This document shows, piece after piece, positions 10,239 through 16,200 of a stretch of DNA of 64,000 bases. Position 1 is the stretch's first letter; each line of letters begins with the position of its first letter. The notes below the pieces were generated by a model. The model ran no database searches, was not told where the DNA came from, and saw only the letters and a program-made list of their open reading frames with translations. The DNA lies in assembly GCA_949358305.1 (NCBI GenBank), contig OX442319.1, forward strand, positions 2,914,001 to 2,978,000. Direction: 5' to 3'. The stretch is from Strigamia acuminata (taxonomy: Eukaryota > Arthropoda > Chilopoda > Geophilomorpha > Linotaeniidae). Position numbers and translations under genes: made by a program.

Positions 10239-13200
10239 ATGGCTTCCATCTTGAAGTCACAGAATGAGAATGATAACAAGTGTGCTCCAATGAAGCCCGA
10301 TGATTTAATGGACTTATCTAAGACCAAGAAAAGGAAACAGGTTCGCGTGTGGTGTGATGGATGGTAAGGTTTCACTTTCACTTAATTAAATTTAGATTAA
10401 TATAAGATGGAATAATGTTTGTAATTTTTCAGTTACGATATGGTCCATTTTGGACATGCGAATTCGTTGAGGCAAGCCAAGGCGTTGGGCGACTGTCTGA
10501 TAGTGGGCGTGCACACGGATGGTAATTTACTGAATTTGCATGGAAATGACAGAAATAAATATTTTTAATTGCAGAAGAAATTGCTAAACATAAAGGGCCA
10601 CCGGTTTTCACAGAACAAGAGCGTTATAAGATGGTACGAGCTATCAAGTGGGTGGATGAGGTGAGAGCTTGTTTCGAATGATTTATTGCACATTTTATTC
10701 TGTTATTTAACATACCACAAATGCTCTCATTGACAAAACTTAGATTCCCTGGATGTACGAAACGATTAGGCGATAATTAAGATAAATTTTCAATCTTAAA
10801 TAGTACGCAAAATGCACTTTTGGCACTTAAAAATTGATTTTTGACTTTAAAAATACGGTATGTACTTTCCAGCTACGTTGTAAAAGATCCTGCGTTCAAT
10901 CAGCATTTCAAGCTCAATGAGTGCATTTACGGTATAAATTCAAGGCTTGATTTGGGATAATTAACCCTAGCAGTACTAACCTAAAGAAAATCTTTATTTA
11001 CCCAACTCGGGTCATTTTTACTCAAAGCCAAAATCACTTTTACAAAAATGTGTGAAAATGATTCTATTCTTTGACTATTTCATGTTTATGAAGAAATTTA
11101 ACCAATTTGACATTTGTCGAAAGAATACGTCAAAAATCATTGAGATTGAATTCAAAAGCAGTTTGTAAAATTTTTGTTTTGAATTTTTAACTCTAGAGCG
11201 GCCAGACCGGCATAGCTGTTTAAAACAGCTGTAGCAATAAATCCAATGGGTTTACAATGGTGTTTATTTTACTTTAGCTGATTTATGATGCTTTACATCA
11301 TTAATCAGCAAATGTGGCATTTTTCTTAAAAAATAATTTTAAAAAAAGAAGAATTAACCTAGAACGGCCGAAATCGATCAAAATTACCCTAGGTTGGGGC
11401 GGGAAGGGTTAAGTAAGATAATTATTAATTAGTAAAACTATTACATACGAATATGTTCGCAAGTCGAATTGTTTTTTCGTCCAGCAAAGGTGTACAAGTG
11501 GAAAAATTATTTTTTCTAATTAAAGAAACCATTTCTATAATATCATTATTATTATTATTATTATTTATTAGAAATTAATAAAGATATGTATTAAACAAAA
11601 ATTTTAATCATAGCCTACTTTGAAAGGTACCACAGCTGGCTTACAGTGCCAGAACTAAATTACCGTATTTTATCGATTAAGAGCCGCAGCTTTTATTCAA
11701 AACTGCCATTTTTGTCCGCAATTACAATTTCGGCTTTTCGTTTGTTACATTTGTTTAATGTCTGAACGTCACGAACTAAGCGTAAGTTTATCGTTCGTGA
11801 GGTTAAATACGGAAACAATACTGTACTTTCTGTACTGTCTTAGCGGCAGCTACTATTCGAGGGTGACTCTTAATCGGTAAAATATGGTATTTACTGTCGC
11901 AAAACTTAAACTTTGTATTTCTGAAAGTTTGGTACTCGAATGTTCGTTTGTATATTTTTTATGGGGTTGGAAGAAAATATTTTGAGAATCTAAGGGGTGC
12001 CGCCAGGCTACAAAAATGTTAAAAACCACGAATATACAGAAAATTATTTCTAAACTTTTTGTTACTTACACAGGTAGTTGAGGGTGCGCCATATGTGACG
12101 AGTGTGGAGACGTTGGATAAATTCGACTGTGATTTCTGTGTTCACGGCGGTAAGTTAAATAAGTTAAATAGCATTAATACGTAGGTAAACGTAGATTATG
12201 AAACTGAGTGTCAGGATCCTGTTTGTGATGGTGATTTCGTCGTATAATTTACGTTTTTTGAATAAATTTTTTTAAGTGCGCAATTCGATGCCATGTCCTG
12301 ACAAGGAAATCAAATGTTTGAATTTAATAGTGAAAATAAAATGAAAAGATGTTCTGCATCACTTTAGATGATATCACCATGACTTCCAATGGCCTGGATA
12401 CATATCACAAAGTGAAATCTGCAGGAAAATATAAGTAAGTGCAGATTTAAATCTGCTGACTTGTTCACCCTTGTCTTAACCTTCAAATTTTTATTTGTTT
12501 ACATTTTCATTCCGAGTCTTTTTTGTTTAGCTTTTTTGCAGTTTTCTGTCGTTATGGTTATTTGCTTTTTTTTAAGTCATGCAAATGAAATGCGTTTTAT
12601 TGATTTTGCTTTTTATTTTTATTTTTATTTTTATTTTTATTTTTAAATAGGATGTAGCAATATTATTCTTTATATGACTATGCAAAAATGCAGTGAATGA
12701 TTTAAACCTGTAATGGATTCCAAGAGATTTGCTAAGTTGATGAGGAACTGGACAAATCAAACATGTATCTCTCAGATTTCAACAAGTATTAAACTTCTAA
12801 ACCTGATGTTTAGAAAGTCTAATAAAACGGTCATGTCCGTCTGTCCGTCCGCGCACTTCCGGCTTCATTTCACTTTGATGTAATATGACGTCACTTCCGG
12901 AAGCAGACGTGCGCGCATTTGAGACTTAGGCGTATATATCGCGTTTTTGCGACTTCAGCGTCAACATCGCGCATTTGCGACGAGTTAAATTCAACATTCA
13001 GTTCAGCCCCGAATATGTTTTTTTGTGCTACAATTCTAGAAGGGGTTTAGAAGTCTGATGTGTAATGCGTCAATGCATTACAGATGTTTACTTGTTTACA
13101 TAGTAAAACTGGCGAATCTAACTGGAATCGATTACTAACAGTTTCTAGTTAAATGAAAAATAGAATTTTATTTTTATAGAAACCTTGTGTTTTGCGTAAT

Positions 13201-16200
13201 TGCCATTCGCTAGTCACATACGACCTTATGTTTATCAGAAAAATGTCTCAAAACTTTGCCTTTTGCCTTCAGTTTGTGCGTAGACGGCTGAACAGTAGGA
13301 TAAGAACCATGCCTGTAATTAGTTGATTGATTATCCACTAAAATTCAAATAAGTCGTCAGTTTTAACCGAGTTGTATGACATTTGTCCAAATCTCAGGGA
13401 CAGGTATCAGAATCCCTATCAGTGTTGGACTGCCCGGTGGAATACTGGGAATTTCCCGGTGGCCCGTAACGTCATGAATTTTTTTTTTTTACTTTTATCG
13501 AGGCCCGACCTATCCAGATTGCCCGGTACTAAATTTGTTCCCAGTCCAGCCCTGATCCCTGTTCGAAACTATCCGAATCTTTTAGAAATTTCATCCGAAT
13601 CTTTCCAAATTTCTATCCGAATCTTTCCAAATTTCTATCCGAATCTTTCCAAATTTCTATCCGAATCTTTCCAAATTTCTATCCGAATCTTTCCAAATTT
13701 CTATCCGAATATTTCCAAATTTTTATTTGAATCTTTTTGAATCCTGCCTGAATCTCTGAAAATCTTTGAAATCCCAAGCGTAAAGATTCGGATTTCTAGC
13801 ACGGATTCTAATCGTCATACCCCGGTTTTAACTGTTATTGTATTCATTTGACAGACAGTTTCATACTAGAAAAATGTCCATTATGTTTTCTATTTTTGCA
13901 CTTCGGTCGTGCCCTCTTGTTTTATTATTTTGTCCCTTTTTTTGCCCATGAAGATGACCTGACGATGGATGCGCACGGGAATGATACGTACCGTTTCGTG
14001 AAGATGAGCAACAGATATAAGTAAGGACCTACTTGAACAAACAAAATCCCTGTTTTAATTAAACTCTACTGGAATGTGTCTGTTTTCAATTCTGTTTATT
14101 GCTGCTTGGGATTGCATTTTGTTATGTTGCTAGTAATTTCCTTGTCAATCCTTGGTTTGTCTTTCTATCTGATTATTGTGCATGCATTGAAATTGACTTG
14201 TGAGTGATTGTACTTGCAGAGAAGTGAAGAGAACTGCTGGAATTTCAACAACGGATTTAGTTGGAAGGTGATTGATGTAAGAAATACAATTAGGAGAATA
14301 ATTTCAATGTATTTTTGTGTTTTTAAGGATGTTACTTATGACCAAACAGCATATGTTGCAAGAGGATCAGGCGTATGGTATTGATAGAGAGCATTCTGGG
14401 AACTTGAGCACAGTTAGTATCATTAGGGGCCGTCCATAAATTGCGTAACACTAATTTTTGGATTTTTAGACCCCCCTTCCCCCTGTAACGAGGTTGTAAC
14501 AAATCCACAAACCCCCCCTAGAAAATTACGTAACAAACTATTACCCCCCCCCCCCAATTTTGATATAGGATATATTAAATGCAAATTTAATAATTTTTAA
14601 TTTTTTTTAAAAAAAAATATAATTATTTTTAAAATTGTATACATTTTCATACTTAACATTTTTGATAATAATTGTGAAAATAAATATTTCGATTTTAAAC
14701 TTTATTTTCCCAAGAACAAAAAAATATATCATGAAGCAATTTTTAATAAGTTGGCATCCATTAAAGTTTTAGTCGCGTACAGGTGGCGCTAGCAACACGG
14801 GAAGTTGAAACTAACACACAAACAAACAAACATTCATGTCAAGTTAAATAAAAGCCTTTAGAAAGGCTGCTATCTATATCACTCTTGTACAGGATTATGT
14901 TGTTCACCAGTATTAATGTTCCTAGGTCGTAGGAATTTGACAAAGTTTATTACTTCACCATTTTTTCTCTTTCCCAGGATTCATCAACGCACAGTCCATG
15001 GACAGGGGTTTCACAGTTTTTACCAACAACTCAAAAGATAACCCAGTTTGCAGAAGGAAAAGATCCAAAACCAAATGATTTTATTGTCTATGTTGCCGGA
15101 GCTTTTGATCTATTTCGTATCCTTGCCAGTGCAATGTCAATTGAGCAGTGTCAATTACAGTCGTGATGGTGAATAATGCATAACTAAACTTTCTAAAAGA
15201 TACCTTTTATTTTAAAAAAAAAACAAGTAATTACTGATAGTTTTAGTTATGAATCAAAGTGCTTTCATGAAACCATTACAGTTTGTTTAAACTGTGCAGT
15301 TGTTCATTTATATTATTCCTATATTATTTAAGATGTGGGGCATTTGGATTTTCTCGAGAAAGCGCGGAAGGAAGGGGACTATTTGATTGTAGGATTGCAT
15401 ACCGATTCAGTAAGTTTGAATCGTCTACCGTATTACCCCGCTTTAAGCGGCTTGCCGTTGGTCATGGGTTTACCTGGTTTTTAGAATTTGCCGGTATGAA
15501 GTGAAACGTGCTGGTATAAGAGCCCGGATGAATAATTATGTTGGAATTTGGGCCTGAAATTTTAGTTCTTTTCATATTCTGAAGGTGTGGGTAAGATGTG
15601 GGTAAATTTAAAGAAATTGAAGCTAATTTTCTACATTTTGGACATCTAAAAGTGATTTTTATGCTTTTTTTGGCGGAATTCTTATTGAAGAAAATTTGCA
15701 TTCACACCGGCATGACGGTAAAAACGGGGTTTATCGGCATGCCAGTAAAACTCACTTTACCGGCATGCGGCTTAAAGCAGGGTAATACGCTACAATCGCA
15801 CACATCTGTATTATCAAGTTGTATAAAAATCTTAAATTCTGTTCGTAGGTTGTTAATCGTTACAAGGGACGCAACTATCCAATTATGAATTTGCACGAAC
15901 GGGTTTTAAGTGTTTTAGCATGCAAGGTAATTTTTGATAACTGATAACTGATGTTTGTAATATTTCCAATGTATTATTTTTCTTAAGTATGTAAGTGAAG
16001 TGGTTATTGGAGCTCCATACTCAGTAACAAAAGATCTGATGGACCATTTTAAGGTTAGCTGTAAGTTATCGTACTGCCTTGAATAAGGGCCGGGCGTAAT
16101 TAAGTGCCGGCTCTCGATTAAGCGCCGGCCAACCGACGGCCGAAAAGTCAATAAGCGCCGGCCCCGAATAAACGCCGGGCTTGTTGAAACGCCGGGTTTA

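What the first reader, a model, noticed from the sequence alone, without database searches (positions are those of the whole stretch)
12368..14020. PCYT2 has two homologous, equal-length exons that look mutually exclusive
Two exons, each exactly 67 nt and of identical phase, encode homologous versions of the same 23-residue segment ([13 protein letters not shown]... and [13 protein letters not shown]...). Skipping neither or both breaks the frame; either one alone completes a 395-aa enzyme. The segment lies in the first catalytic repeat directly before the RTAGISTT motif, so a swap could change substrate handling or regulation. The known vertebrate PCYT2 variant involves a different region. 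The intron between the exons contains a hAT-like MITE and a minisatellite.
Basis: partly seen in the sequence, partly recalled or inferred. Interest (0 to 1): 0.8.

Follow-up and report, generated by a model that had tools for sequence, protein, structure and literature searches.

The report
PCYT2 gene with two swappable exons
An arthropod gene for a key membrane-lipid enzyme carries two alternative versions of one small exon that forms part of the substrate pocket, so the animal can probably make two forms of the enzyme by choosing one exon or the other; it is a new example of a known kind of gene switch, not yet checked in RNA.

Summary
In a complete 14-exon PCYT2 gene (10239-16888, +), two 67-nt exons of the same phase (A 12368-12434, B 13954-14020) encode homologous 23-residue segments (12/23 identical). 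Either gives 395 aa; both or neither gives a stop within three codons of the junction. Simulated neutral decay to the same DNA divergence left a stop-free copy with six conserved residues in 0 of 40,000 runs, so both copies were kept by selection. Mutually exclusive splicing is very likely, but no RNA was available.

By homology the segment is loop L5 plus the next helix of cytidylyltransferases, at the phosphobase subsite. Among 200 homologs it has two forms: Asp6 with Arg14 (32 proteins, including all 17 named chelicerates) or neither (168, including every named insect, crustacean and mollusc), without exception. Exon B is the Asp/Arg form, exon A the other: one gene holds both. I saw no other species with both, but isoforms may be hidden by database clustering. 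Five text searches gave no report of such a pair. No splicing-control element was established. New member of a known kind.

The parts
10239..10363 (+). PCYT2 exon 1, coding part from ATG
   Evidence: continuous 395-aa frame; matches human PCYT2 3elb, E 3.5e-154
10433..10521 (+). exon 2 (HFGH motif of first repeat)
10575..10660 (+). exon 3
12074..12149 (+). exon 4, ends ..CVHG plus one base; donor GCG|GTAAGT
12368..12434 (+). exon 5[24 protein letters not shown] (Thr6/His14 form)
13954..14020 (+). exon 5[24 protein letters not shown] (Asp6/Arg14 form)
12435..13953 (+). 1519-nt GT-AG intron between A and B, too long for steric exclusion
14220..14267 (+). exon 7 (..[16 protein letters not shown]), common partner of A and B
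14328..14412 (+). exon 8
14978..15116 (+). exon 9 (linker and start of second repeat)
15333..15409 (+). exon 10 (completes the HVGH motif of second repeat)
15849..15926 (+). exon 11
15988..16053 (+). exon 12
16575..16640 (+). exon 13
16703..16888 (+). exon 14, coding part to TGA
12789..13070 (+). dispersed repeat in the A-B intron (right edge not fixed); not thought to be part of the switch
13569..13736 (+). 22-bp minisatellite, 7.6 copies, in the A-B intron

Best explanation
Exons 5A and 5B are an old tandem duplication of one 67-nt exon, spliced in a mutually exclusive way, so that the single PCYT2 gene makes two full-length 395-aa enzymes differing only in 23 residues. Shown: sequence, frame logic, selective upkeep of both copies, place in the first catalytic repeat. 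Inferred from homologous structures: the segment is the lid (loop L5) and helix that close over the phosphorylated amine. Inferred: the A form (Thr6/His14) and the B form (Asp6/Arg14, perhaps an ionic latch between lid and helix) differ in lid closure and so in affinity, turnover or choice of phosphobase. Inferred: exclusivity is set by splicing factors that favour one exon per cell type or condition, while transcripts with both or neither meet an immediate stop and are removed by nonsense-mediated decay.
For: Equal length and phase, AG/GT sites, frame logic. Neutral decay to the same divergence keeps six conserved residues without a stop in 0 of 20,000 runs from A and 0 of 20,000 from B (one B run kept the six but had a stop); 12/23 identity was reached in 1 and 0 runs. 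Positions 2, 9, 11 and 17, invariant in 108 distinct segments, and near-invariant 13, 16 and 22 are kept in both. Exon B shares up to 17/23 residues with a homolog (Varroa P0022) and exon A up to 18/23 (Thrips palmi P0065), each more than the 12/23 they share. Asp6 and Arg14 occur only together: 32 of 32 proteins with Asp6 have Arg14, 168 of 168 without Asp6 lack it. One PCYT2 gene seen in the genome: 13 of 16 matches lie in this locus, the other 3 in a PCYT1-like gene on C10. Structure.
Against: No RNA evidence of either isoform. No other species seen with both forms; the nearest homolog by tree, unnamed P0012, shows only a non-Asp6 form. All introns next to the pair look U2-type and no docking/selector pairing is established: local stems were matched by 9, 28, 62 and 82 of 200 shuffles in four comparisons, so no exclusion mechanism is identified. 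The Asp6/Arg14 coupling rests on about 4 changes on the tree; the independent-pair test has too few pairs to be significant, and the Fisher value ignores kinship. The latch was not measured on any structure.
Confidence: 0.72

Rival explanations
1. The pair serves mainly to tune enzyme amount: double inclusion or skipping makes an unproductive transcript, and the two productive isoforms are biochemically equivalent.
For: Both wrong outcomes stop within three codons of the junction and 622 or 551 nt before the last junction. Both exons start ATGAY and end AA, so either order of double inclusion gives AA|A TGA, a built-in stop.
Against: The segments differ at 11 of 23 positions and match two recurrent family-wide forms rather than drifting freely. 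An out-of-frame pair follows from any duplication of a 67-nt exon and needs no regulatory use.
Confidence: 0.15
2. Exon B (or A) is a relic that is no longer spliced in.
For: No RNA; in other species I saw only one form each.
Against: Intact frame, splice sites and conserved residues in both copies at saturated synonymous divergence (dS not computable, dN 0.51); 0 of 40,000 decay runs give a stop-free copy with the six residues. Site scores of A and B fall inside the range of the gene's other sites.
Confidence: 0.05
3. The pair is used, but exon B reached Asp6/Arg14 by convergence in this lineage, so its likeness to chelicerate PCYT2 carries no historical meaning.
For: The form changed about 4 times in the sampled tree and also occurs in Acanthaster, the sponge Oscarella, P0155 and P0166. 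23 residues cannot resolve ancestry.
Against: Position 15 also fits: Phe or Tyr follows Arg14 in 16 of 17 named chelicerates and in exon B.
Confidence: 0.3
4. The duplication is an assembly artefact or a misplaced second allele.
For: None found.
Against: 52% identity between the exons and no shared flanking sequence.
Confidence: 0.01

Closest known systems
coq-2 exons 6a/6e of nematodes, annelids and molluscs (PMC7434440; passages seen)
   Same: Homologous exons of equal length not divisible by three (134 nt each), spliced mutually exclusively in a biosynthetic enzyme, swapping two core helices that handle the substrate; two invariant residues mark one form.
   Different: Different enzyme; exon use and RNA are shown there, with removal of one exon abolishing nearly all rhodoquinone synthesis in C. 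elegans. Nothing of that kind is shown here.
Mammalian PCYT2 alpha/beta/gamma isoforms (PMC3588000; passages seen)
   Same: Alternative splicing of the same gene giving isoforms that differ in activity (alpha 4-fold above beta in vitro).
   Different: [quoted passage not shown] no duplicated exon is described in the passages, and the N-terminal catalytic domain is kept.
Drosophila Pect isoforms (protein records)
   Same: Several protein isoforms of the orthologous gene.
   Different: The D. melanogaster and D. teissieri isoforms compared vary mainly in the linker between repeats; 31 of 31 higher-fly proteins (P0123-P0154 without P0142) carry a Thr6/His14 segment.
PKM1/PKM2 and other enzymes with mutually exclusive exons (PMC7954323; passages seen)
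   Same: Homologous exon swap tuning a metabolic enzyme; that paper also lists cases touching ligand-binding and catalytic residues.
   Different: The PKM swap acts on allostery and the tetramer interface, not on a lid over the substrate.

Membership tests
Mutually exclusive homologous exon pair | Two neighbouring internal exons, homologous in sequence | tested here: met
   BLOSUM62 61 against 30 for the next best frame in 64 kb; one intron between them
Mutually exclusive homologous exon pair | Same length and phase, each alone completes the protein | tested here: met
   67 nt each, 395 aa with either
Mutually exclusive homologous exon pair | Joint inclusion or skipping gives no working protein | tested here: met
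   stops after 148 and 127 residues
Mutually exclusive homologous exon pair | Both copies kept by selection | tested here: met
   0 of 40,000 neutral runs keep the six residues without a stop
Mutually exclusive homologous exon pair | Junction reads for each exon, none (or only unproductive) joining the two | not testable with these tools
   no RNA data at hand for this organism
Mutually exclusive homologous exon pair | Pair conserved in relatives | tested here: inconclusive
   each form widespread, no species seen with both; lists capped at 120, clustering may hide isoforms, and other animal genomes could not be searched
Exclusion by U2/U12 incompatibility or by too short an intron | U12 site next to one exon, or A-B intron too short | tested here: not met
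   GTAAG donors at exons 4, A and B; A-B intron 1519 nt
Exclusion by competing RNA pairing (docking/selector) | Intron complementarity beyond chance, conserved in relatives | tested here: inconclusive
   local stems matched by 9, 28, 62, 82 of 200 shuffles; long gapped duplexes matched by 1 of 60, 108 of 200 and 8 of 60; no relatives to compare
PCYT2 (CTP:phosphoethanolamine cytidylyltransferase) | Two tandem cytidylyltransferase domains with HxGH motifs, full-length similarity to solved PCYT2 | tested here: met
   PF01467 in 2 stretches of both isoforms, 3elb E 3.5e-154; HFGH and HVGH in the sequence
PCYT2 (CTP:phosphoethanolamine cytidylyltransferase) | Activity on phosphoethanolamine | not testable with these tools
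   needs an assay

The most novel reading that the evidence does not exclude
The A/B pair is the ancestral state of arthropods (or older): an ancient switch between two forms of the PCYT2 lid, later resolved by reciprocal loss, with chelicerates keeping the Asp/Arg form and insects and crustaceans the Thr/His form, while this lineage still keeps both and uses them to change which phosphobase is activated (for example phosphoethanolamine against phosphocholine or 2-aminoethylphosphonate).
Probability: 0.15. Interest if true: 0.78.

Novelty: new member of a known kind. Interest (0 to 1): 0.52.

Why it matters
PCYT2 makes CDP-ethanolamine, the main regulatory step towards phosphatidylethanolamine, the most abundant phospholipid in Drosophila (PMC3588000, abstract and passages). 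A lid swap built into the gene would be a switch on that step. Because the two exon forms match the two forms that separate chelicerates from insects and crustaceans in my sample, the pair offers a natural experiment on what the lid does, and a testable case of exon duplication followed by sorting between lineages, comparable to the coq-2 switch.

Tried and rejected
U2/U12 incompatibility: rejected, the donors of exons 4, A and B are GTAAG-type; the one U12-like donor is in intron 9, far from the pair. Steric exclusion: rejected, 1519-nt intron. Docking/selector pairing: a local-stem scan gave a perfect 12-bp helix 12299-12310 / 14136-14147 matched by 9 of 200 shuffles, and 28, 62 and 82 of 200 in the other three comparisons. 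Long gapped duplexes of whole introns were matched by 1 of 60 (upstream with middle intron), 108 of 200 and 8 of 60 shuffles; the first is low and speaks mildly for pairing, but it spans about 180 nt and is unlike a docking site, so I left it open. Single folds: hairpin around the A donor z -1.69, other pieces -0.92, +0.68 and +1.00. One TGCATG (Rbfox-type, motif recalled) at 14179, no enrichment test made. Second PCYT2 gene: none seen; the C10 matches look like PCYT1 by their HDDIPY..VY segment. Third exon copy: none in the window. Prior reports: five full-text searches. Searches found no paper; one yeast paper (listing only); six papers, of which passages of three were seen: a PCYT2 alternate acceptor event in breast cancer (PMC7841428), a mouse Pcyt2 minor intron of 379 bp (PMC6717393) and a mouse Pcyt2 splicing event in sepsis coded NIR (PMC11607010); none is a duplicated exon. 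The other three were seen as listing only. The main texts of two catalogues of human exon pairs, PMC5740500 and PMC9741552, do not name PCYT2; their supplements were not seen.

Organism: not named. TTAGG repeats, 7401 + 11514 matches against 8 + 13 for the reversed control, fit an arthropod (recalled). In the mitochondrial contig the COX1 and COX2 frames overlap, leaving little room for a tRNA, and tRNA-Leu(taa) lies between a large-rRNA match and ND1 (protein genes named by eye; only 7 tRNAs found). By the recalled rule that insects and crustaceans carry that tRNA between COX1 and COX2, and by the tree, it may be an arthropod outside insects, crustaceans and chelicerates, perhaps a myriapod; unproven. 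COX1 was not searched, because the last protein search went to the exon question.

Rows dropped: one search used 99 of 183 homologs (5 odd ones dropped by name, the rest not chosen), and in 2 of them the segment was left unmasked. One search used 161 of 200: 9 odd, fused or very distant rows and 30 flies left out. One search counted 182 of 183; all 200.
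Full report
OBSERVATION. The gene is a complete PCYT2 of 14 exons on the + strand, 10239-16888. Exon 5A (12368-12434) and exon 5B (13954-14020) are 67 nt each. Both begin with ATGAY after an AG and end with AA before GTAAG; both complete the codon left open by exon 4 (..GGC G|) and are closed by exon 7 (|AGAAGTG..). The A form and the B form are each 395 aa. The two exons share 35/67 bases and 12/23 residues. 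No other ungapped frame in the 64-kb window comes near (61 against 30), and the flanking introns share nothing beyond 7-8-nt words. Double inclusion gives AA|A TGA at the junction; skipping gives GAG AAG TGA. The stops lie 622 and 551 nt before the last junction, so decay of these transcripts is expected from general knowledge.

BOTH COPIES ARE KEPT. Synonymous change between A and B is saturated (third-position identity 7/22; dS not computable, dN 0.51). Starting from A or from B, random substitution to the same DNA identity left a stop-free copy with Asp2, Gly9, Asp11, Tyr13, Val16 and Lys17 in 0 of 20,000 and 0 of 20,000 runs (one run from B kept the six but had a stop); 12/23 identity was reached in 1 and 0 runs. 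So neither copy looks like one adrift. The gene is single as far as seen: a whole-genome search with the A protein gave 16 matches, 13 in this locus and 3 in a PCYT1-like gene on C10.

WHERE THE SEGMENT SITS. phmmer aligns the A protein with human PCYT2 (3elb/4xsv, E 3.5e-154) and with Plasmodium CCT over the segment: ITM lies over IPY and DTY over DIY. In the Plasmodium enzyme loop L5 (712-738, holding Tyr714) is visible only with CDP-choline bound, and Ile740 and Tyr741 move in as the choline subsite closes (PMC6060094, passages). An AlphaFold2 model of the tick homolog P0052 from 30 sequences (mean pLDDT 80.5; 78 and 90 in the two blocks over the segment; under 50 between the repeats) shows mainly loop over residues 103-115 and a short helix 116-120; position 6 is in the loop and position 14 is the first helix residue. 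The model matches 3elb and 4xsv best, then Plasmodium and mammalian CCT. So A and B offer alternative lids and lid-helices over the phosphorylated amine. This rests on homology; neither isoform of this animal was modelled or measured.

TWO FORMS ACROSS ANIMALS. Over the 200 homologs collected by three searches (others listed, of up to about 3,400 that passed the cut-off), 32 have Asp at position 6 and all 32 have Arg at position 14; 168 lack Asp6 and all 168 lack Arg14 (distinct segments 23 and 99). The 32 are 17 of 17 named chelicerates (Limulus, spiders, ticks, mites), the starfish Acanthaster (P0159), the sponge Oscarella (P0165) and 13 unnamed. The named insects, crustaceans and molluscs all have another form; 137 of the 168 are Thr6/His14 and 16 more have Thr6 with another residue at 14. 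Human PCYT2 has Thr6/Glu14 (alignment). Exon A is Thr6/His14, exon B Asp6/Arg14. On a tree made without the segment (161 of 200 homologs plus the query) each of the two residues changes 4 times; independent pairs are too few for a test (2 on supported branches, 4 in all). One row, unnamed P0021, is Thr/His but falls among the chelicerates (support 89 for that group); it could be a chelicerate with the other form, or misplaced. The query joins the unnamed P0012 (support 83), outside both the chelicerate group and the insect-crustacean group; an earlier, smaller tree put the query beside insects and crustaceans (support 89). P0012 shows only a non-Asp form, which counts mildly against a shared pair. 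The database is clustered near 90% identity, so a second isoform of the same species can be hidden and absence is weak evidence; on the other hand near-identical fly isoforms are listed apart, and 31 of 31 higher-fly proteins carry a Thr6/His14 segment.

HOW IT MOST LIKELY WORKS. One exon per transcript, chosen by splicing factors; wrong products destroyed. No specific control element was established; the one low shuffle count, 1 of 60 for a long duplex between the upstream and the A-B intron, is left open. Asp6 and Arg14 may form an ionic latch between lid and helix in the B enzyme that the A enzyme lacks. The likely result is a change in lid dynamics and so in Km, turnover or phosphobase choice. 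Shown: sequence, frames, selection, two coupled forms. Inferred: exclusive splicing, decay, latch, kinetic effect.

COMPARISON. It works like the coq-2 6a/6e pair (equal 134-nt exons, swap of a substrate-handling region; PMC7434440, passages). It differs from the mammalian PCYT2 variants, which touch exon 7 and introns 7 and 8 (PMC3588000, passages). Five full-text searches for PCYT2, Pect or the enzyme's name with mutually exclusive exons or exon duplication gave no report of such a pair (three of the six papers seen in passages, three as listing only). The library holds open-licence papers only and genome annotation databases could not be searched, so an annotated but unpublished case elsewhere is possible.

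VERDICT. A real, selectively maintained exon pair in a central lipid enzyme, very probably mutually exclusive: new member of a known kind, raised in interest by its place on the substrate lid and by combining the two forms that otherwise separate animal groups in my sample.

Noticed in passing
window 15117-15332: Intron 9 of PCYT2 starts GTATCCTTG, close to the U12-type donor consensus (recalled), although no branch-site match with up to 2 mismatches was found. Human and mouse PCYT2 are said to hold a minor intron (PMC7644725, passage; PMC6717393, passage); whether at the same place was not checked.
   Followed up: partly
window 12789-13070: Dispersed repeat in the A-B intron with 52 matches in the genome, its own included, from 40 scored of 507 candidates; short inverted repeat 12788-12803 / 13044-13059. 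hAT class untested.
   Followed up: partly
window 34985-35110: 5S rRNA gene, 65 bits against a gathering score of 38.
   Followed up: no
contig C157 (L013, L014): 15,068-base mitochondrial contig whose gene order looks rearranged: COX1-COX2-COX3-ND6-ND2 run on one strand, with ATP6, CYTB and ND3 elsewhere on it; ND4L-ND4-ND5 and ND1 on the other (names by eye). Little room for a tRNA between COX1 and COX2.
   Followed up: partly
proteins P0072 and P0109 (Panulirus ornatus): Spiny lobster PCYT2 carries five extra residues (GSIFS) between CVHG and DD, where exon 4 meets exon 5 in the window gene, as if the acceptor of this exon were shifted.
   Followed up: no
protein P0021: Unnamed homolog that groups with chelicerates but has the Thr6/His14 segment, the one exception in that group; a possible second lineage with both forms.
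   Followed up: no
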